Positions 1,048 to 33,772 of a DNA stretch of 64,000 nucleotides are shown here, piece after piece. Position 1 is the first letter of the stretch. Each line of letters opens with the position of its first letter. The notes under the pieces are model-generated. The model did no database searches. It was not told the DNA's origin and saw only the letters and a program-made list of their open reading frames with translations. Position numbers and translations under genes: made by a program. Source of the stretch: Neoarius graeffei (taxonomy: Eukaryota; Chordata; Actinopteri; Siluriformes; Ariidae); NCBI RefSeq assembly GCF_027579695.1, contig NC_083577.1, positions 61,034,741 to 61,098,740 on the forward strand, read 5' to 3'.

Positions 1048-3135
1048 CAGGGCCGTACCCAGGATTTTTCAAATACCGAGGTCAAACATGGCTGACAGCA
1101 CTGAAGCCCCCCGGCACAACTTAAATAAATAAATAAATAAATAAATAAAGGATAGATTTGGTGGAGGACACATTTATTTTAACGATTCTAAAACTGTGGC
1201 ACCATAACTGTGGTATTTTATCTGACGTAAAAGTAGAAAAGTAGTAAACTCTTGAACTGAGTATACATACCTAAAGTACTGGCATTATTTACATTGCAGC
1301 ATACACATGACAGAAAGGGTGTGAACTGCTGAATTGTAAGTTTTAGTATTACACCTTATAATAATAGTGTGAGTGTGTGTGTGAGAGCGAGCGTGAGCCC
1401 ATGTTTACCTTAGACCGTATCAGCGGATCATCAGATTAACGTTTTTAAAACGATTAGTGTGCACACAGCAACACCAATACACGATTTGCGTGCACACAGC
1501 AACACCAATACACGGATACGCTCGGCTCCGCAGGCATCCTGCGCTCCAAATCACTCCGCCCTGAACAGCGAGTGCCCTCTGGAGGGTGCGCACTCCGGCC
1601 CTGCGCAGCTCACAGAGCGCGCGAGTGAAGTGCACAAGCTGTGATTCGGGACTGAGCCGCTGTGTGTGTGATCCCAGCGCTTATCACTTACCACTTGCAA
1701 GTGGAAGGATGGCAAGCCTAAAGACAATCATAACTACACAATGGGCAGTATTTGCATCAGTATTTTCATACTTTTATACTCTTTAATGAAAGGTGATACA
1801 AGGCGGAAGTCCGTGCTGTTTTTCAGCAGTCGCGTCACATGACCAACGCCAGCGAATCAGGAAGGTGGATGTCACAGTGACGTTGTCCAATGACGACGCC
1901 AGCTAGAGCTCAGCACAGCGTATCCGCGTATCTCAATGTTTACACAGCACTGGACCAGACACGATCTGGATTGAATACGTGGACCCTGGCGGATTCCCGT
2001 TTCCCGGCGTTTTAATGTAAACGAACAGTGCATCCGCAAAGAAAACGAGACAGATACGGTCTAATGTAAACTTGGCCTGAGAGAGTTTGTGTGTTATTTG
2101 TGGGTGTCTGTATGTGTAGAGACATTCTGAGCAGTAATGTAAAGGCATCAGTCTATCTAGCTGTCTTGAATTGAGATCCATTTGCATGCATTCTCTGAAA
2201 CAGTGTGTTCTCACCATTGCCTGTAATGCAAGTTTGGCTCACAACACATTTACTTTAACAATTCTAAAACTGTGCCATCATAACTGTGGAGTTTTGTCTG
2301 ACATAAAAGTCAAAACTGAACTGAGTGTATTGCTCAGCTACCTGAAGTATTGGCATTATTTACATTTCATTATCTTAAATTACATTAGAATGTAGAGTTA
2401 TTAGTTCTGTGTGAAGACTATGCATTAGAGAGAGTGTGTGAGAGTGTATTATTTGTGTGTATGTGTCTGTGTGTGTGAGTGAGTGAGAGAGAGTTATGAG
2501 AGAAAGAGAGAGTTACTCGAACAAGCCTGTTTAGTCAGCCCTGCACAGGGCTGCCTGTGACAACTTAGTTTTGAATGTTTCTCGAAATGCTAACTAAAAT
2601 GTAATAGGCAATGACAATGAAACGTTTCCCCTTGGAAAGTTAGCATGATACCGCTGAACGGTCTGCCACTGCACTGACAATATTTTCTCACCTTCCCTCC
2701 TTCTCTTTCTCTGCTCTTCTGTTGGCTGTCCAAACCTTAATTTAGTTTGTTGCAACTTTTTCATTTTGCACTCAGGTAAAGCTCTATAATGCTATGTGAC
2801 TATTAGCCTACGTTAGGTTAGGTAGGCATATGTGATAGAGCGTACACTACACCCTGGCTGTTTTATCCAAAACCCAACTTCCCCGGCCGACACTAGTATA
2901 GGCTATGTCGCGTGACGCTGCGTTAGACACGGCAACGATAGAGATAGAGGCTGAGAGATTTCAGATGACATTAGACAAATGTGAATTTTATTGGGGGGAA
3001 ATACAGATGACATGTGGATGCGGACGCTGCGTTTCACATTGATCACTGCTTGAATTCAGCGTAGTCCAATTTGAAATTTCTGAAAAAAATACCGAGGACA
3101 TGACCTCGGTGTCCTCAATGGTAGTTACGGCCATG
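1048..3135. mobile_element. hAT-like non-autonomous element (2.1 kb)
   Basis: The ends read CAGGGCCGTACCCAGG and, reversed, CATGGCCGTAACTACC, each followed by a segment containing ACCGAGGTC. The flanking TSD ACCCTGCC (1040-1047, 3136-3143) is a perfect 8 bp, as expected for hAT. There is no transposase ORF. Inside, a block at about 1157-1300 recurs in diverged form at about 2239-2375, so the element carries an internal duplication. It also holds (AAAT)n near 1122-1147 and GT/GA-rich stretches. The 945-bp element at 23677-24621 shares the termini. Confidence 0.85.
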
Positions 3136-3285
3136 ACCCTGCCTTTCGCCCGTAGTCAACTGGGATAGGCTCCAGCTTGCCTGCGACCCTGTAGAACAGG
3201 ATAAAGCGGCTAGAGATAATGAGATGAGATATTTATAATCTGATTTTACAAGTAAGGTGAGAAAGAAACTTCGATTCTCCTATAA

Positions 3286-4747
3286 GGGTTGTTTTACAAT
3301 CAGGGCACAAAGTTTGTGTCACAGGGGTCCAAAATTCAAATTGATTCAAACTGGTTCTTGTACCGGTTTTTAAGTGAAGGACAAGTTAAAGAACAGATTT
3401 CAGGTAATTTTTTGACATGTGTGTATGGTAGTTTTGTGTAATCTGCTATAAGATAAAGAAGATTAAGTGGAGCTTTAAGCAGGGCTGGGAGAAACAAATG
3501 AAGTTATTCTCGGAGAGGACTTTTTTTTTTTTTGACAATTCAGAATCCACTACTTCCATAGTGCTTTTAAATACAAGGCTGTAAGCTTTGTGTTATGGCC
3601 CTTTTCCAGCTCACTTCAGCCCGACACGGCTCGCGTTTCGACTACCAAAAAACAGCACAACTCGGCTCGCTTCAGCCCTGCTTAGCCCTTAAAACTCGCA
3701 CCATTTTGGAGTGGGGCTGAAGCGAGCCAAACCGAGCCGAGTGAGGCTGGGGGCGTGAGCAGACACTCCCCTGTGCACTGATTGGTGAGGAGGAGTGTCC
3801 TCACATGCCCACACACACCCCGCGAGCACGCTGGGATCTGTAAACACCGTAAACCCGGAAGAAGAAGAATTACGAATTACGAGAATTTCTGAAGCCTTAT
3901 GCGCCTCGCCTCATCTATACGCTCTTGCCAGTATCTGTTGGCGTTGTCGGTGACAACAAGCCACAGCACCAAGACCAGCAACACTAACGACTCCATGTCC
4001 TCCATGTTTATTGTTTACTATCCGGGTCGTGAGACTACCGCTTAAAAGATCACTGATGTCACTGTTTGCGCTGCTTAACGACATCACGTGACGTCCACCC
4101 ACTTTCGCTAACTCCACCCAATGTGTCCACCCACTTCCAGCCAGCACGGTTCAGCGCGGTTGTAGTCGAAATGCAACTCCAACAGCCCCGCTCAGCCCGA
4201 CTCAGCACGGCACGGCTCAGCCCAGCCCAACTCAGCCGCGTTTGTAGTGGAAAAGCGGCATTAGTTGTCTCTAATATTTATGTCCCAATATCTTGACCAC
4301 ATTTTAGGATGAAAATAATCATTTTAGATATGTTATTTTATATTGAAAAATTAGCTGTCTCGGAGAGGACTTTTTTTTTTTTTTTACACAATTACATACT
4401 AATTTGATCAAAACAGTCTGAAAACTTACTGGCATTCAACATTAAAACTTAACTATGTTTCTTTGTTTTATAGTATAAAGAATGATTTAAGTGCATCCCT
4501 TTTGGAGCTACCTGTGGTCAAAAAAGCACTTGTTCTAAATGACACGAGTAATTTTGCTAAATATGACCTATATTGCCATACATTCACCAAAAATAACGTT
4601 ATCACCAATTTTTTTTTTGCATGGTAAATAGAGCTATCACAGGGCTACAATAAACAACCAAGTTTATTTAGTCAAGCCTTTTGATATTGAAGATAATAAG
4701 TGTTAAATGTGATTTTTAGCTTGCGTACCCTGATTGTAAAACAACCC
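3286..4747. mobile_element. unassigned TIR element with nested Harbinger copy 2
   Basis: A perfect 20-bp inverted repeat, GGGTTGTTTTACAATCAGGG, sits at 3286-3305 and, reverse-complemented, at 4728-4747. The interior is AT-rich and non-coding apart from the Harbinger copy at 3596-4260. A direct repeat, TCTCGGAGAGGAC followed by a T run, occurs at 3508-3534 and 4358-4385, on either side of the Harbinger insert. No clean TSD could be read at the outer ends, so the superfamily is open. Confidence 0.6.
3596..4260 (-). mobile_element. PIF/Harbinger-like non-autonomous element, copy 2
   Basis: A 665-bp copy in the opposite orientation to copy 1, with the same TIR family and a 3-bp TTA TSD at 3593-3595 and 4261-4263. 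TTA is the classical Harbinger target and is the best support for the family assignment. It carries the conserved 42-codon ORF on the minus strand (start 4005, end 3877). Confidence 0.8.
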
Positions 4748-5188
4748 ATACTGTAAGTCCTGGATATACACTGAAGTGACAATAAAAATCTTTGAATCCT
4801 GAACTCTAACTCCGAGCTCCCAGTCACTTCTACAGTCCATTGTTAACAGTCCAGTCCTGCAAGTCTGGCGACACATCATCCAGGCTAAAGTTCCATATTT
4901 AATTAAAATCCAGTGCATTATCTTGCGTTATTGTTTACATGTTCCTTGTGTAACAGCGTGTGGTTTGTGTTTATACACGGTATGGATGTGTACAAGCTAC
5001 GGCTGAGAAGTTAAACCCTGTAAACAACGGCGTTTTTAAAACAAAGTCAGTAGGAATATCTTGCTTTAACCGGTGTGAAGAGCCACAAATAGTATTTGTT
5101 GCTAAGTCGGAAATCTCCCAAAAAAAAACCTCTCCAGGCCTCTCGCGCGCGCTCTCTCTCTCTCTTTCTTGCTCTCTCTCTCTCTTAC

Positions 5189-5510
5189 CTTCAGTAAAGG
5201 GGCTTTTGTTCCGGACAGCCAGTCGACTTTTTTTTTCCGGTGTAACACACACTTTCAAACTTGTCATTCCTTCGCCGCCATCGCTGTCGCTACCTCCCGC
5301 CGCCCCGCGCTTCTCCTCCTGCCGCCTCACAACTCTCGACCTGTCGCAGCTCCACTCCACCGCCGCTCGTGCTCGTATGGAAGAGTGCGCGTGCAACACG
5401 GTCGGAGGCGGGCGCGAGCATAGGCGCGTGCACGCTCGCATTCCAGGACCGCTTGTAAAATTCCCAACCCCCCCTCCGCGGGCGCGCGCCGGGAGAGCGG
5501 AAGTATCTGC
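5189..5510 (-). other. CpG-rich segment with a candidate host first exon
   Basis: About 5270-5510 is strikingly GC- and CpG-rich compared with the AT-rich surroundings, and GA-rich sequence follows it. Read on the minus strand, an ATG at 5267 opens 26 codons (MTSLKVCVTPEKKSRL, then about ten more residues) and runs into a strong splice donor, GAAG|GTAAGAG, with the exon ending at 5189. A short upstream ORF (ATG at 5281, MAAKE) overlaps this start. CpG island, short first coding exon and consensus donor together suggest a promoter and first exon of a host gene transcribed toward lower coordinates. I do not recognise the protein and see no second exon in the window. The long ORFs on both strands here are expected in GC-rich, stop-poor DNA. 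Confidence 0.4.
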
Positions 5511-5901
5511 TATCAAAGTATCCGGGGACAAGTGGGTTTACCACCTTACATAGGTTCAGAGACCAAACAGTTATGGCAAAGAGGAGTCAAGAACTTATAA
5601 ACAGGTGTCATCTCTGACACTCTCAGAAAATAAAGTACGTCGGCTTGTCACTGGTACCCTCTAAGGTACTTATTTGTACCAGTTCAAAAGTTTGGGGTCA
5701 CTTTGAAATGTCCTTATTTTTGAAAGAAAAGCACTGTTCTTTTCAATGAAGATCACTTTAAACTAATCAGAAATACACTCTATACATTGCTAATGTGGTA
5801 AATGACTATTCTAGCTGCAAATGTCTGGTTTTTGGTGCAATATCTAGCCTGGGCCCGCCCATCCTAAGCGTGACGCAACACGAGGGCCTGTTGCGAGCTT
5901 A

Positions 5902-13627: not shown

Positions 13628-13818
13628 ATCCCCATGTTACATTAATTGGAGCATAGTTTTACACCAGATGCCCTTCTTGCCACAACCCTCCCATTTCCAG
13701 GCTTGGGAAACAACCATTCACACCTATGGGCAATTGCTGGGTTTCACGTGACGTCACATCTGCCTCATTAATTATTCAAAACTTTAGCTGGTGGGCTACC
13801 AAAGCTCAGTTGACAAAG

Positions 13819-14179
13819 ATGTCTGTGAAGATTCTCAGGCCCTGTCCACACAGCAACAGATTCAGGTGAATCTGATAAAATTGTTTATCGTTTCGGCCTG
13901 GCGTCCACACGGCACCGGCGTTTTGGGTGCCCCAAAACGAAATCTTTTGAGAATGGGTTTCAGAGTCAAAAAATCTGGCAACGGCGCCATTGCGAAGTCG
14001 TCTGGATGAGTAGAAAGGATTTGTTTACGATGACATCACAACCACATGACTGTCAGTGCTTCACGCCGGGGAGAAGTGTAACGAACTCGATGCGAGTTGT
14101 CAACAAATCCTATAACTTGGTTCATGAAACGCGCTTACAAAATATTTTCACTGTGAATATTTATTGTGTAATGGTGCAA

Positions 14180-14223
<44 letters not shown>

Positions 14224-15249
14224 GCCCTTAGGGCAGAGTCTTTAGTCCAAACACTGTGGAAGCAGTACCAAACCGCGCACCGCCCGTGCACTTTCCAAAA
14301 ACAAAAACAATCCCGCCAGCAAAAATAGGAAAAAAAAAGGAGCGATCTCACCTCTTCAGATGTTGGTTTAAGTCCGACAATACATTCCTCAAAAAGGGCG
14401 TAGAAGAACAAAGTAATCCATCAACGTGTAGCATTCAATTTATTCCGGACCATTAAAGAATTCTGGAGGATATCAGAATGTTGGCGTACCGGCTTCCATC
14501 TACCCCCATTCATTCCTCTTTCCGCGTCTTTCGTTTTACGCTACTGATTAATAATCTAAACTTTGTGGCTGATCCTACAGAAGAAGGGGTTTATGCGCAT
14601 GCGTTTACTTCTTCTATTGTTCTGGTGTCTCCGATGGGACCGTCTTATAGCGCACATAGAGGTGTGGCATGTGTATTGCATCGTTTTCAGCAAGCGTTGC
14701 GTTGCCATATGAACCTAATATTTTACTGATCCGTTGCCCATGTGGACGCGATATTTTTTTTTAAAAATCTCGTTGCCGTTGTCGTGTGGATGTAGCCTCA
14801 GTCATCCAGGTCATAGTAAACTGTGGGTGGTAAAAGAGAGCAACTGGACTTGCTTGAAGATTCTTGAAGACGCTTCACCTCTCATCCGAAAGGCTTCTTC
14901 AGTTCTGTCTGACTGGTAGGGAGCATCAGGTATTTATCCTCTCATGGATGGAAAGCTCATCTAAGGTGTCATGGAGTCATCCTGTTGGTGTGGGTCACTG
15001 GGGGCTGGTTGTGAACAGCCTCGAGATCATGATCATCCTATCGACTCTCGAGGCCGTTCACAACCAGCCCCCAGTGACCCACACCAACAGGATGACTCAA
15101 TGACACCTTAGATGAGCTTTTCATCCATGAGAGGATAAATACCTGATGCTCCCTGCCAGTCAGACAGAACTGAAGAAGCCTTTTGGATGAGAGGTGAAAC
15201 GTCTTCAAGAATCTTCAAGCAAGTCCAGTTGCTCTCTTTTACCACCCAC
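13819..15249. mobile_element. foldback retroelement (Penelope-like, tentative), interrupted
   Basis: It has the same ends as the 99-bp copy at 13529-13627. A 16-bp TSD, AGCTCAGTTGACAAAG, lies at 13803-13818 and 15250-15265. Apart from the insert at 13838-14797 it is one long inverted repeat: arms of about 200 bp (14798-15025 and about 15035-15249) meet near GATCATGATCATCCTATCG. Long, variable-length TSDs point to target-primed retrotransposition. Inverted terminal duplications are known for Penelope-like elements, hence the tentative label. No reverse transcriptase or GIY-YIG domain is present. Confidence 0.6.
13838..14797. mobile_element. 960-bp TIR element (GGCCCTGTCCACAC ends)
   Basis: Left end GGCCCTGTCCACAC; right end reversed GGCTACATCCACAC. 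The 3-bp TSD is TCA (13835-13837, 14798-14800). It contains a (GA)n tract at about 14181-14221 and no transposase. The 3-bp TSD would fit a Harbinger-type mechanism, but the family is unproven. Confidence 0.7.
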
Positions 15250-15301
15250 AGCTCAGTTGACAAAGCATTTGTACAGAGAAGGTGTATTGCTCGCATGAAA
15301 A

Positions 15302-15547
15302 ATGCCTTACACTTGCATTGTTTTAGGTTGTTTGAATCGATCAAGCTGTGAAACTGATAAAAGTTTCTTCAGAGTTCCCCATGAACTAATAAAAAAGGGT
15401 GAACGAACACAGGATTTCACAAAAAGACGTCGAGAAAGGTGGCTTTTGAACCTCTCACTGAAATCGAAGGGAGCTGGGTCGAAGCATGCTCGAGTTTGCA
15501 GTGATCACTTCGTGAAAGGTTTGTATATCCCTCAGCTATGTCCTTAG
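15302..15547 (+). pseudogene. THAP zinc-finger domain, first exon remnant
   Basis: An 81-residue ORF starts MPYTCIVLGCLNRSSC. It shows the C2CH THAP pattern: Cys5-x4-Cys10, then Cys66-x2-His69 within RVCSDHF, together with the conserved SFFRVP proline, RRERW tryptophan and final phenylalanine. THAP domains bind DNA sequence-specifically and are the DNA-binding part of P-element-type transposases and of several host factors. The spacing between the Cys pairs (55 residues) is slightly longer than usual. Beyond VKG the frame soon stops, and GTGAAAG|GTTTGT could be a splice donor. The start lies about 120-150 bp inside the left TIR once the foldback insert is removed. No catalytic domain remains. 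Confidence 0.75.
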
Positions 15548-15907
15548 TGTTTTCCAAGTACTTTTCTTGCTATGTGTCATTATTTTACAGTACGTTTTTT
15601 AGTCACGAAGTGCTAAAGTCCCCAGCTGTTTCTTTGTTTACTCCTCACTCCTCACAAAGTCCATATGCATGAAGGTCGCGACAAAATTCTTACCCAGCCA
15701 TACAGTTACAATGCGCTGTGATCACCATCTTGTATAACTAAGATCCAGGTCTTTAAAGGGGTTTCTGATGATCTTTGTGAATGATTTACCTGAGAGATAA
15801 GAGCCAACACAAGTGAAAATCAAGCGAACAGTTGTTTATTTACACTTCAACTTGCAGCACTTCATTGTAAAGACGCAAACGAAAAGCTTAAAAAAAACCA
15901 TACTTAC
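15548..15907. other. interior of the THAP/YqaJ-type element
   Basis: AT-rich non-coding sequence between the two inward-facing coding ends, presumably containing the internal deletion junction and intron remnants of both genes. Confidence 0.5.
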
Positions 15908-16247
15908 ACGGGCAAAAACAATACAGGATTCATTCGGCAGCGACTTGATACCGAGGTCCTTTACCCAGCCACATACAAAAAAGTTGTAAGCCTCCATACT
16001 CTTACATACTTTCATCTGTTTTGCGGTGTAGAAGGATGTCTGCAACACCAGATAGTTCGAGATGTCAAGGAACCCGACTGAAGGGTCGTTTTCAAGATCG
16101 TATGACAAATCCTTCTTTCCCAGACTGTAGGGGTTGATTCCATTGCACATAGCGATCTTCTGAATAATATCTAAAGTGAGCAGTGGCTTCTAGATTACCA
16201 GCATACTCTGATAAGTTATCGCTAGTTGTTTGCACTACGGCAGCCAT
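15908..16247 (-). pseudogene. SWIM/YqaJ-associated protein, N-terminal exon with frameshift
   Basis: On the minus strand an ATG at 16247 reads MAAVVQTTSDNLSEYAGN. A one-step frame change near 16185 then continues KPLLTLDIIQKIAMCNGIN, followed by DISNYLVLQTSFY and KSMEAYNFFVCGWVKDLG. The exon ends IVFARV at a consensus donor, CCCGT|GTAAGTA (exon edge 15908). The YLVxxTSFYTxxQMK...KSxEAYNxFVxGWVKD pattern is what I know from the segment just before the SWIM zinc finger in large fish and cnidarian families that end in a YqaJ-type exonuclease domain. Neither SWIM nor YqaJ is present here. The ATG lies only 65 bp inside the right TIR. Confidence 0.5.
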
Positions 16248-16530
16248 TTAGACCACCAGCTATTTCACTTCTGGTAAAACCACTAAGAAAAGTCACGTGA
16301 CTGAAACCCAGCAATTTAGAGTAGCCAGTTAACCTAACTGCATGTCTTTGGACTGTGGGGAAACCAGAGCACCCAGAGGAAACTCACACAGAGAGTATAC
16401 AAACTCCAAACCAAAAGGCCCCTTCCAGCTACTAGGCTCAAACCCAGAACCTTCTTGCTGTGAGGCGACAGTGCTAACCACTGCACCACTGTGCCAACCA
16501 AACAATTTTCAGCAATAATGAAAGGAATGT

Positions 16531-17285: not shown

Positions 17286-20200
17286 TAAAGCCGCAAGCGG
17301 CCTCGACGGGCCCTCGCGCCAGCGGCCAAGGGGGGCGGGGGCATGCGTCCCCGCGAAATACCTTCCACAGCTTCTTTGGCAAGAGACATTACTCCCACAA
17401 TGGTGACAAAGCACAGAATTGGACACAGAGTACACGGTGCGCTGAGATGTTGTCATGGACAGAACATTTTATGCCATGGCCTCCCAACCAAATTAATGTA
17501 TTTACCTCATCAGTCACCAAGCTAAAGCTACATAGGATTGTCTTCTGTTAGACATCTATTAGTCTGTATGTAACGCTACAACACTTGCTCCCGACTGCCT
17601 ACCCATTCCCCACAAGTCATGTGTTTTTAAGGCAACCAAAACAACATACTCCTGGTGCCTCATGATTGTAAACACCTCTCCTGCAACTGCTACAGCGCAA
17701 TGAGCGCCCCCAGTGGTCCACAAGTCATGTGTGTTTAAGGCAACCAAAACAACATACTCCTGGTGCCTCATGATTGTAAACACCTCTCCTGCAACTGCTA
17801 CAGCGCAACGAGCGCCCCCAGTGGAGAAAGTTCACCAAATTTGGTATACATGTCAAGGGACCTATGAAGAGTTGTTTTGTAAAGTTTGATCAAGTTTGAC
17901 CAATCAGAAGCCGAGATATAAATTGTTGCCTGAAAACAGCGCCCCCAGTGGCAAAAGTTCACAAAATTTGGCACATATGTCAGGTGACCTGTTAAGAGTG
18001 TGCCTATCAAGTTTGATCAAGATTGAGAAAATAGAAGATGAGATATTGATTTTTGAAGAATAAATTTTCTGGTTTCTCCCATGTCAGTAGGTGGCGCTAT
18101 GCTGCACATGAGCGATTATGAGTTGGAAAAATAAGTGTCTACAACAGCAACGTACTATCAGAAGGTAGTGGTGTGAAGGAGAAGCATTATGGAATTATTT
18201 ACCAAAAACCTGTTTCGGAGCAATTGCGTTGGCCAAAAACAGCGCCCCCCATGGACGAAAATTCCCAAAATGTGGTGTACATGACATGGGAGGTAGTAAG
18301 AGGGTGGCCGTGAAGTTTGACCAAATTTGAGGAAAGATTGGATTTTTTGCCCAAAAATAGCGCCCCCAGTGGCGAAATATCACAGAAATTGGGTAACATG
18401 TCAGATGCCCAATGAGTGATTTGCGTGTGAAGTATGAGCAGTTTTGAGCAATTTGAAGATATGTTATGAATTTTTAAGCATGTAAAATTTTGCATTGAAA
18501 ATTGATTGACGTATAACTTCTGAACGGTTTATTCTACGTGAAACGTATTTAGGAACTTTTGTCAGCCGTGTCTGTAGATGATGTGTATCAATTTTGGTGA
18601 CATTCCTATGAACGGTCTAGGAGGAGTTGCGCCGTCTTCGTCGCCATGCATTTCGCACAAAAGTGAAATTACCTCACTTCCTGTTGGGCGTGGCTAATGC
18701 ATTGGCATTACATTTTTGTCCGGCTTAGTGAGATACATATGCGTACCAAATGGCATGCCACTACTACAAACTACATGGCAACCAGGCACCTTAATGCGGG
18801 AGGCCAAAATCACAATGAGTTAGGGGGCGCTATAGAGGCCCTGAGGCCCGCCTGGATCTGGGCTTCTGGTTCTCAGTAGCGGTGGGAGTCTAAGAAAAAG
18901 GAGCCAAATTTCGTGCGATGTCGACCATGGCAAGCGCCCCAAAAAGGGTCTTGTAAAGAGTTTGCTTGCCAAGTTTGACAAATCAGAAGCTGCAATATCA
19001 TTTCTGCCATAACCAGCACCCCCAGGGGCGAAAGTGCACAAAATTTGGCGTACATGTCAGGTGAGCTATGAAGAGTTCGCGTATGAAGTTTGATGACAAT
19101 TGAGTAAACAGAAGATGAGATATAGATTTTTGAAGAATACATTTTTTGGTTTTTCCCATGTCAGTAGGTGGCGCAATGCTGTACATGAGTGATTATGAGA
19201 TGGAAAAATAAGTGTCCACAACAGCAACGCACTACCACAAGGTAGTGGTGTGAAGGAAAAGCATTATGGAACTATTTACCAAAAACCCGTTGTGGAGAAA
19301 TTGCGTCGGCCAAAAACAGCGCCCCCCATGGACGAAAATTCCCAAAATGTGGTATACATGACATGGGAGGTAGAAAGAGGGTGGCCGTGAAGTTTGACCA
19401 AATTTGAGGAAAGATTGTATTTTTTGCCCAAAAATAGCGCCCCCAGTGGCGAAATATCACAGAAATTGGGTAACATGTCAGAAGCCCAATGAGTGATTAG
19501 CGTGTGAAGTATGAGCAGTGTTGAGCAATTAGAAGATTTGTAATGAATTTTTAAGCATGTAAAATTTTGAAGTGAAAATTGATTGACGTATAACTTCTGA
19601 ACGGTTTATCCTACGTGAAACGTATTTAGTAACTTTTGTCAGGCATGTCTGTAGATGATGTGTATCAATTTTGGTGACATTCCTATGAACGGTCTAGGAG
19701 GAGTTGCGCCGTCTTCGTGGCCATGCATTTCGCACAAAAGTGAAATTACCTCACTTCCTGTTGGGCGTGGCTAATGCATTGGCATTACATTTTTGTCCGG
19801 CTTAGTGAGATACATATGCATACCAAATGGCATGCCACTACTACAAACTATATGGCAACCAGGCACCTTAATGCGGGATGCCAAAATCACAATGACTTAG
19901 GGGGCGCTATAGAGGCCCTGAGCCCCGGCCAAGTGTGGGCTTTTGGTTCTGAGTAGCGGTGGCAATTCTCGGAAGTGGCGCCAAATTTCGCGCGTTTTCG
20001 CCCATGGCAAGTGCCCCGAAAATGGCCCAACAGCGGAGAAAAATAAAGAAGAAGAAGAAGACGGAAGAAGAAGAAGAAGAAGAAGAAGAAGAAGAAGAAG
20101 AAGACGGAAGAAGAATTAAAGCCGCAAGCGGCCTTGACGGGCCCTCGCGCCAGCGGCCAAGGGGGGCGGGGGCATGCATCCCCGCGAAATACCGTAAAGA

Positions 20201-33448: not shown

Positions 33449-33772
33449 CCATCCATAATCTATACCACTTATCCGGCAGGGTCGTAAGGGAAGCTGAAGC
33501 CAATCCAAGAGAGGCAGGGTCAGGCCCTGGGCAGGCTGCCAATCCACTGCAGGGCTAACACAGAAACAAACAACCATTCACACTCAGATTCACACCTATG
33601 GGCAATTTAGAGTAGCCAATTGACTTAATCCACATGTCTTTGGACTATGGAAGGAACCCCATACAGGAACGAGGAGAACATGCAAACTCTGCACAGAATG
33701 TTCCCAGCGAGGATTGAACCCAAAACCTTTCTGCTGTGAGGTGACAGTGCTAACCACTGCACCACAATGCCA
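33449..33772 (-). mobile_element. old diverged SINE copy
   Basis: Reverse-strand SINE landmarks run from CCATCCATAATCTATACC to CACTGCACCACAATGCC. Divergence is high. Confidence 0.75.

What the first reader, a model, noticed from the sequence alone, without database searches (positions are those of the whole stretch)
13736..16312. A TIR element carrying a THAP start at one end and a SWIM/YqaJ-family start at the other
Inverted ends (GCTGGGTTTCA...), an empty site provided by the surrounding SINE and a short AATT TSD define a mobile unit. Just inside the left end lies a THAP zinc-finger exon (15302-15547, plus) and just inside the right end an N-terminal exon (15908-16247, minus) resembling the segment before the SWIM zinc finger in YqaJ-exonuclease proteins. 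The two starts face inward, as if an autonomous parent held two convergent genes: a DNA-binding protein and a recombinase-like nuclease. I do not know of a named superfamily with that pair. It would explain why such YqaJ/SWIM proteins form large lineage-specific families in fish.
Basis: partly seen in the sequence, partly recalled or inferred. Interest (0 to 1): 0.82.

Follow-up and report, generated by a model that had tools for sequence, protein, structure and literature searches.

The report
Deletion-derived ISL2EU transposon, high copy

Summary
An element with inverted ends lies at 13735-16313; an uninterrupted copy of its target repeat is in the same window. One end holds a THAP first exon (Pfam E=1.5e-9), the other the first exon and half of the SWIM exon of a SWIM/YqaJ gene, both facing inward. 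The duplication is AT (both sides in 15 of 18 copies), not AATT (identical 4-mers in 2 of 18). A later insertion lies at 13819-15249.

The proposed gene pair is real: 36 of 71 YqaJ matches in this genome have a DDE_Tnp_4 transposase match within 10 kb, all 36 convergent (shifted control mean 0.06). Three long relatives were read; they carry both genes, with frames broken in places. That architecture is the published ISL2EU group (PMC4482050, PMC9179366), so it is not a new superfamily.

The window element is an internally deleted, nonautonomous ISL2EU family with 1377 and 1233 intact ends in the genome. Its THAP exon shows no codon-level constraint. No autonomous parent with these ends was found. 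New member of a known kind; interest low.

The parts
13733..13734 (.). target duplication AT, left copy (target read as A|AT|T)
   Evidence: empty site
13735..13818 (+). left (THAP-side) end of the element, TIR TGCTGGGTTTCACGTGACGTCAC...
13803..13818 (+). 16-bp duplication AGCTCAGTTGACAAAG, first copy (target of the nested insertion)
   Evidence: D5
13819..15249 (.). later nested insertion with a retroelement-type long duplication: Penelope-like (name recalled) pieces around another element at about 13837-14796; not part of the transposon proper
   Evidence: the 18 copies measured are 1127-1138 bp and so lack it
15250..15265 (+). 16-bp duplication, second copy
15302..15518 (+). first exon of the transposase gene: ATG and THAP zinc finger, followed by a GT at 15519 (splice donor inferred)
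15519..15692 (.). probable remnant of transposase intron 1 up to the inferred deletion breakpoint
   Evidence: inference; parent not found
15693..15789 (-). piece of exon 2 of the YqaJ gene, VNHSQR...AHCNCMAG, cut inside the SWIM motif; frame broken in this copy
15790..15907 (-). intron 1 of the YqaJ gene (GTAAGT donor, CAG acceptor; inferred from sequence)
15908..16247 (-). exon 1 of the YqaJ gene, ATG (MAAVVQTTSDNL...) to donor; frame broken in this copy, open in the majority of 18 copies except that the majority reads ACG where this copy has ATG
16248..16313 (.). right (YqaJ-side) end of the element, TIR read inward TGCTGGGTTTCAGTCACGTGAC...
16314..16315 (.). target duplication AT, right copy

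Best explanation
A nonautonomous, internally deleted member of the ISL2EU group (PHIS superfamily) of cut-and-paste DNA transposons. The parent had two convergent genes: a THAP+HTH+DDE transposase starting at one end and a SWIM/YqaJ exonuclease starting at the other. A deletion ran from intron 1 of the first gene into the SWIM exon of the second. What remained, about 1.13 kb with both ends, spread to more than a thousand copies, presumably using transposase supplied in trans. Inferred mechanism: the THAP finger binds the ends, the DDE domain cuts with a 2-base stagger at AT, and gap repair gives the AT duplication. The role of the YqaJ nuclease is not known. Shown: ends, duplication, empty site, copy number, exon identities, architecture of relatives, absence of the catalytic domains. 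Inferred: the deletion event, mobilisation in trans, THAP binding to the ends.
For: THAP exon. SWIM/YqaJ exons match YqaJ genes in the same genome (majority reading: exon 1 44.7% over 85 aa, E=1.6e-23; exon 2 up to 58.8% over 34 aa). Relatives L059, L060, L061 carry a THAP exon (Pfam for L059; tblastn for L060 and L061), HTH_Tnp_4/DDE_Tnp_4 and, convergent, YqaJ, with AT beside each end as read by eye. 36 of 71 YqaJ matches have a DDE_Tnp_4 match within 10 kb and 36 of 36 pairs are convergent; shifted control mean 0.058, maximum 1 of 500 trials (it used the 150 DDE places listed, which scored 150 of 1485 candidates, so 36 is a lower bound). AT at both ends in 15 of 18 copies. 1377 and 1233 exact ends, reversed controls 0. 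Published definition of ISL2EU: AT duplication in target A|AT|T, THAP+HTH+DDE ORF and YqaJ ORF (PMC4482050).
Against: No autonomous copy with these ends was found. The one longer copy read, L076, is the same short element with a 3.35-kb insertion that by its ORFs looks like a non-LTR retrotransposon. TIRs begin TGCTGGG, whereas PMC4482050 says ISL2EU TIRs usually begin GG. The base outside AT is T on the left in 11 of 18 and A on the right in 11 of 18, against the published A|AT|T. This family's own DDE domain has not been seen, so placement rests on THAP, YqaJ exons, ends and duplication. The relatives read are distant (THAP 27-40%), and L061's exon 1 is not among the hits when the window's own reading is the query.
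Confidence: 0.95

Rival explanations
1. The two exons are remains of unrelated insertions that happen to lie between two inverted repeats.
For: The window element does hold an unrelated nested insertion (13819-15249), so composites occur here.
Against: 18 copies align end to end at 1127-1138 bp, and their majority reads both exons in the same order. Both match the corresponding exons of single long elements L059, L060 and L061.
Confidence: 0.01
2. A new superfamily with a recombinase-like nuclease as its mobilising enzyme.
For: The YqaJ/SWIM gene is a constant partner: 36 of 36 neighbouring pairs are convergent. No role of the YqaJ protein in movement is given in the passages read.
Against: The THAP gene in relatives continues into HTH_Tnp_4 and DDE_Tnp_4, a standard transposase; the set is published as ISL2EU.
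Confidence: 0.02
3. A P-element-type or Kolobok-type transposon, since both are known (recalled) to use THAP domains.
For: THAP exon just inside one end.
Against: Duplication AT in 15 of 18, not 8 bp or TTAA (recalled defining duplications); partner gene is YqaJ; relatives carry DDE_Tnp_4.
Confidence: 0.01
4. A domesticated host locus in which the THAP exon is kept for a function.
For: The THAP frame is open in this copy (82 aa) and shows no stop in many of the 150 matches scored.
Against: Substitutions in the THAP exon of 19 sequences fall on codon positions 1, 2, 3 at 5.2%, 5.8% and 3.8% (72/1384, 80/1380, 52/1382): positions 1 and 2 are not spared. The YqaJ exon frame is broken in the window copy. 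This tests the family, not this one locus.
Confidence: 0.01

Closest known systems
ISL2EU group of the PHIS superfamily (PMC4482050, PMC9179366)
   Same: AT duplication, short TIRs, THAP-bearing transposase gene and YqaJ exonuclease gene; present in teleosts; target A|AT|T at the window copy
   Different: This family is internally deleted and lacks HTH, DDE and YqaJ domains; TIR starts TGCTGGG rather than GG; in the 18 copies the bases outside AT are more often T and A than A and T
Long ISL2EU-type elements in the same genome: L059 (C17:3.05 Mb), L060 (C2:6.12 Mb), L061 (C12:35.44 Mb)
   Same: Same gene order and facing; homologous THAP exon, YqaJ exon 1 and exon 2; by eye L059 and L061 share subterminal TTTCAC or TTGCA followed by TGAYGTCAC-like sequence
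   Different: THAP 27-40% identical, YqaJ exon 1 33-45%, different outermost bases (AGATAG..., AGAGTGCT..., RGAG...), so different families
PIF/Harbinger (PMC4482050)
   Same: DDE transposase related to that of ISL2EU, and a second ORF
   Different: TWA duplication and a Myb/SANT partner instead of AT and YqaJ
MITEs and other deletion derivatives of DNA transposons
   Same: High copy, ends kept, most of the coding interior lost
   Different: Longer than typical MITEs (recalled) at about 1.13 kb, and still carries recognisable first exons of both parental genes

Membership tests
ISL2EU | 2-bp AT target duplication | tested here: met
   15 of 18 copies AT at both ends; identical 4-mers only 2 of 18
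ISL2EU | target A|AT|T | tested here: inconclusive
   Window copy yes, with empty site; in 18 copies the base before AT is A in 6, T in 11, G in 1; after AT it is T in 7, A in 11
ISL2EU | ORF with THAP, HTH and DDE transposase | tested here: inconclusive
   THAP exon met here; HTH and DDE deleted in this family; present in relatives L059-L061
ISL2EU | second ORF with YqaJ exonuclease | tested here: inconclusive
   Exon 1 and half of the SWIM exon kept; YqaJ domain deleted here, present and convergent in relatives
ISL2EU | TIR of 6-259 bp, usually starting GG | tested here: inconclusive
   12 matched terminal bases, 13735-13746 with 16302-16313, within the length range; starts TGCTGGG, not GG
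ISL2EU | autonomous length about 4.8 kb | tested here: inconclusive
   Not for this family (no parent found); L059 measures about 4.9 kb between its terminal repeats at 2015 and 6891
P element | 8-bp duplication and P-type transposase (recalled) | tested here: not met
   AT duplication; Pfam finds DDE_Tnp_4 in L059-L061
Kolobok | TTAA duplication (recalled) | tested here: not met
   AT duplication
PIF/Harbinger | TWA duplication and Myb/SANT partner | tested here: not met
   AT duplication; partner is SWIM/YqaJ

The most novel reading that the evidence does not exclude
The family scattered more than a thousand ready-made 5' modules (subterminal E-box/CRE-like motif, start codon, THAP DNA-binding exon, splice donor) through one genome, and some have been spliced onto host exons to make new THAP fusion genes. 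A weaker form: this ISL2EU lineage has shifted its target from A|AT|T towards T|AT|A.
Probability: 0.08. Interest if true: 0.5.

Novelty: new member of a known kind. Interest (0 to 1): 0.2.

Why it matters
It settles a proposed new superfamily as ISL2EU, and gives in one genome a count of how regularly YqaJ genes belong to ISL2EU elements (at least 36 of 71 have a convergent transposase beside them). Gene predictions of THAP or YqaJ/SWIM proteins in such genomes should be screened as transposon genes. What the YqaJ nuclease does in transposition is still open and is the one point of real interest.

Tried and rejected
Parent search. The THAP exon as protein query gave 16498 first-look candidates, of which 150 were scored and none was read. 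YqaJ loci L029-L058: a search for the end with up to 2 errors gave imperfect matches in L031, L041, L042, L046, L055 and L058, not followed up; these loci reach only 1.5 kb beyond the match, so ends may lie outside. L059-L061: one 1-error match to the end, inside a gene in L060. L062-L075 were not searched for the ends. tblastn of the exons over L029-L075 found relatives, over alignments of 60 aa or more, at up to about 45% (exon 1) and 43% (THAP), no near-identical gene copy. In the end positions listed (first 100 of each only) I saw by eye three convergent pairs about 4.5 kb apart; the one read (L076) is a short element with another insertion, the other two were not read. By eye, no listed end on C1 lies within 10 kb of any of the 9 YqaJ matches on C1.

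AATT as a 4-bp duplication: rejected. P element, Kolobok and Harbinger: rejected as above. Codon constraint on the THAP exon: none. Extra conservation of the ends: none seen; agreement is 0.945 and 0.950 in the outer 60 columns against 0.954 for the whole core. No structure prediction was run.

One search paired YqaJ with only 57 of the DDE matches; one search repeated it with the 150 listed and gave the same 36 of 71. The control shifts DDE positions forward by 0.05-40 Mb, so some fall beyond the chromosome end, which lowers it somewhat. In one search, 2 of 20 copies (L009, L026) were dropped because my end pattern did not find both ends. The 20 copies are the best matches to the window, so the divergence figures (3.5-5.7% from the majority) are not a random sample.

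Full report
What is there. The inverted ends are exact over 15 bases, 13732-13746 and 16302-16316. The insertion sits in a repeat that occurs many times in the window and in the fetched loci; window 33593-33617 reads CACCTATGGGCAATTTAGAGTAGCC without interruption, which is the empty site. The shorter exact string is in none of 75 loci.

The duplication. AATT at one site cannot tell a 4-base from a 2-base duplication, because AT with element ends T...A gives the same string. Twenty further copies were fetched; both ends were found in 18. AT stands at both sides in 15 of 18 (left 15, right 18), the base between AT and the left GCTGGG is T in 17 of 18, the base before AT on the right is A in 18 of 18, and the two flanking 4-mers are identical in only 2 of 18. 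The element is therefore TGCTGGG...CCCAGCA (13735-16313) with an AT duplication. Outside AT the left base is T 11, A 6, G 1 and the right base A 11, T 7.

Nested insertion. 13803-13818 and 15250-15265 are the same 16 bases, and the 18 measured copies are 1127-1138 bp long, so they lack the stretch between. Its outer parts resemble pieces of L061 around an ORF that by recall looks like the GIY-YIG end of a Penelope-like retroelement (not tested against Pfam), and its middle, about 13837-14796, recurs in L061 in three pieces at 91-95%. The element proper is about 1.13 kb.

The two exons. THAP: ATG at 15302, Pfam THAP E=1.5e-9, then a GT. YqaJ side: exon 1 at 16247-15908 minus ends at GTAAGT; Pfam finds nothing in it. 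With the window's own reading the best matches among the loci held are 41% over 85 aa for exon 1 (E=2e-20, L068) and 39% over 71 aa for THAP (E=1e-14, L059). With the readings of the majority of 18 copies they are 44.7% over 85 aa for exon 1 (E=1.6e-23, L059) and 38% over 71 aa for THAP (E=2.6e-14, L059). The majority is open through exon 1 but reads ACG where the window copy has its ATG. After a 118-base intron there is a second piece, 15789-15693, VNHSQR...AHCNCMAG, up to 58.8% over 34 aa to the SWIM exon of those genes. It stops in the middle of the SWIM motif.

Long relatives. Pfam YqaJ gives 71 matches in the genome and DDE_Tnp_4 151, with 150 of 1485 candidates scored. With the 150 listed, 36 of 71 YqaJ matches have a DDE_Tnp_4 match within 10 kb; all 36 pairs are convergent; when DDE positions are shifted at random the mean is 0.058 and the largest of 500 trials is 1. 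The other 35 YqaJ matches have no listed DDE neighbour. Three loci were read over 9.9 kb. L059: THAP exon 2189-2398 plus, HTH/DDE ORFs 3012-3575 and 3517-3984 plus, SWIM/YqaJ 6019-4424 minus, exon 1 6744-6349 minus. L060: THAP 830-1042 plus with a stop inside, HTH/DDE 1613-2887 plus, YqaJ 6257-4668 minus. L061: THAP 9270-9061 and HTH/DDE 7854-6505 on minus, YqaJ gene 3303-5580 on plus. The THAP of L059 was confirmed by Pfam, those of L060 and L061 by tblastn only. At their ends, read by eye, AT stands beside repeated terminal sequence: ATAGATAGTTTTCAC (L059), ATAGAGTGCT (L060), and a looser pair in L061.

The known family. PMC4482050 (text read in parts 1 and 2 of 4) defines ISL2EU by AT duplications in target A|AT|T, one ORF with DDE, HTH and THAP, and another with a YqaJ exonuclease domain, in animals, average autonomous length about 4840 bp. 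PMC9179366 (passages) describes ISL2EU in teleosts as a DDE transposase with HTH or THAP domains plus a YqaJ exonuclease ORF, and states that to its authors' knowledge no proof of ISL2EU activity had been reported; it does report expression. Both were found by searching ISL2EU with YqaJ; a search of YqaJ, transposon, fish lists both again. So the pair is named. A search for ISL2EU with catfish listed one plant paper and one for at least two of ISL2EU, MITE and nonautonomous listed 20 of 201 papers; by title none describes this particular family. Repbase itself was not available, so whether this family has a Repbase name is not known.

Abundance, age, constraint. Exact ends allowing CpG decay: 1377 on the THAP side, 1233 on the YqaJ side, 0 for each pattern reversed. 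The 18 copies and the window differ from the majority by 3.5-5.7% (window 4.3%); they are among the best matches to the window, so this is a biased sample. Of 950 substitutions 370 are CpG transitions; the ends are no more conserved than the rest. In the THAP exon substitutions by codon position are 72/1384, 80/1380 and 52/1382: no sign that the protein is kept.

How it works. Most likely: a deletion from transposase intron 1 into the SWIM exon of the nuclease gene left both ends; the short element spread by cut-and-paste with transposase supplied from elsewhere. The DDE domain of relatives makes that the catalytic enzyme. The YqaJ domains of L059-L061 keep, by eye, acidic and ExK residues recalled for this nuclease class; what the nuclease does for the element is not known. 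The exact parent was not found; the one long copy that was read (L076) is a short element with a 3.35-kb insertion in it.

Verdict. The remaining points of interest are the target preference, which differs in this sample from the published A|AT|T, and the dispersal of a THAP exon with start codon and splice donor.

Noticed in passing
window 13819-15249: Insertion with a 16-bp duplication made of Penelope-like (recalled) pieces in inverted orientation (206-base arms, 97% complementary, 14821-15026 and 15046-15251) holding another element at about 13837-14796 that recurs in L061 in pieces at 91-95%.
   Followed up: partly
window 17610-17824: Tandem repeat of 2 copies of 108 bases, 98% matches.
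   Followed up: no
G000:C17 2.20-4.52 Mb (L029, L030, L033-L036): Six YqaJ matches on the minus strand spaced about 0.4-0.6 Mb; four of them have the DDE match at a gap of 704-713 bases. Could be large segmental duplication or an assembly effect rather than transposition.
   Followed up: no
G000:C11 37.98-40.31 Mb: Cluster of 11 DDE_Tnp_4 matches in open frames of 416-425 aa; no YqaJ match is listed on C11.
   Followed up: no
window 13735-13760 and 16290-16313; L059, L061 ends: Subterminal motifs TGACGTCA (THAP side) and CACGTGAC (YqaJ side) recur, by eye, in L061 clearly and in L059 loosely, near both start codons; could be transposase sites or promoter elements. In 19 aligned sequences TGACGTCA is intact at the left in 10 and CACGTG at the right in 8, and the ends are no more conserved than the core.
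   Followed up: partly
L076: A copy of the short element interrupted by about 3.35 kb with ORFs that by eye look like endonuclease and reverse transcriptase of a non-LTR retrotransposon.
   Followed up: partly
window 16245-16247: The window copy has ATG at the YqaJ exon 1 start where the majority of 18 copies reads ACG; L076 also has ATG.
   Followed up: no
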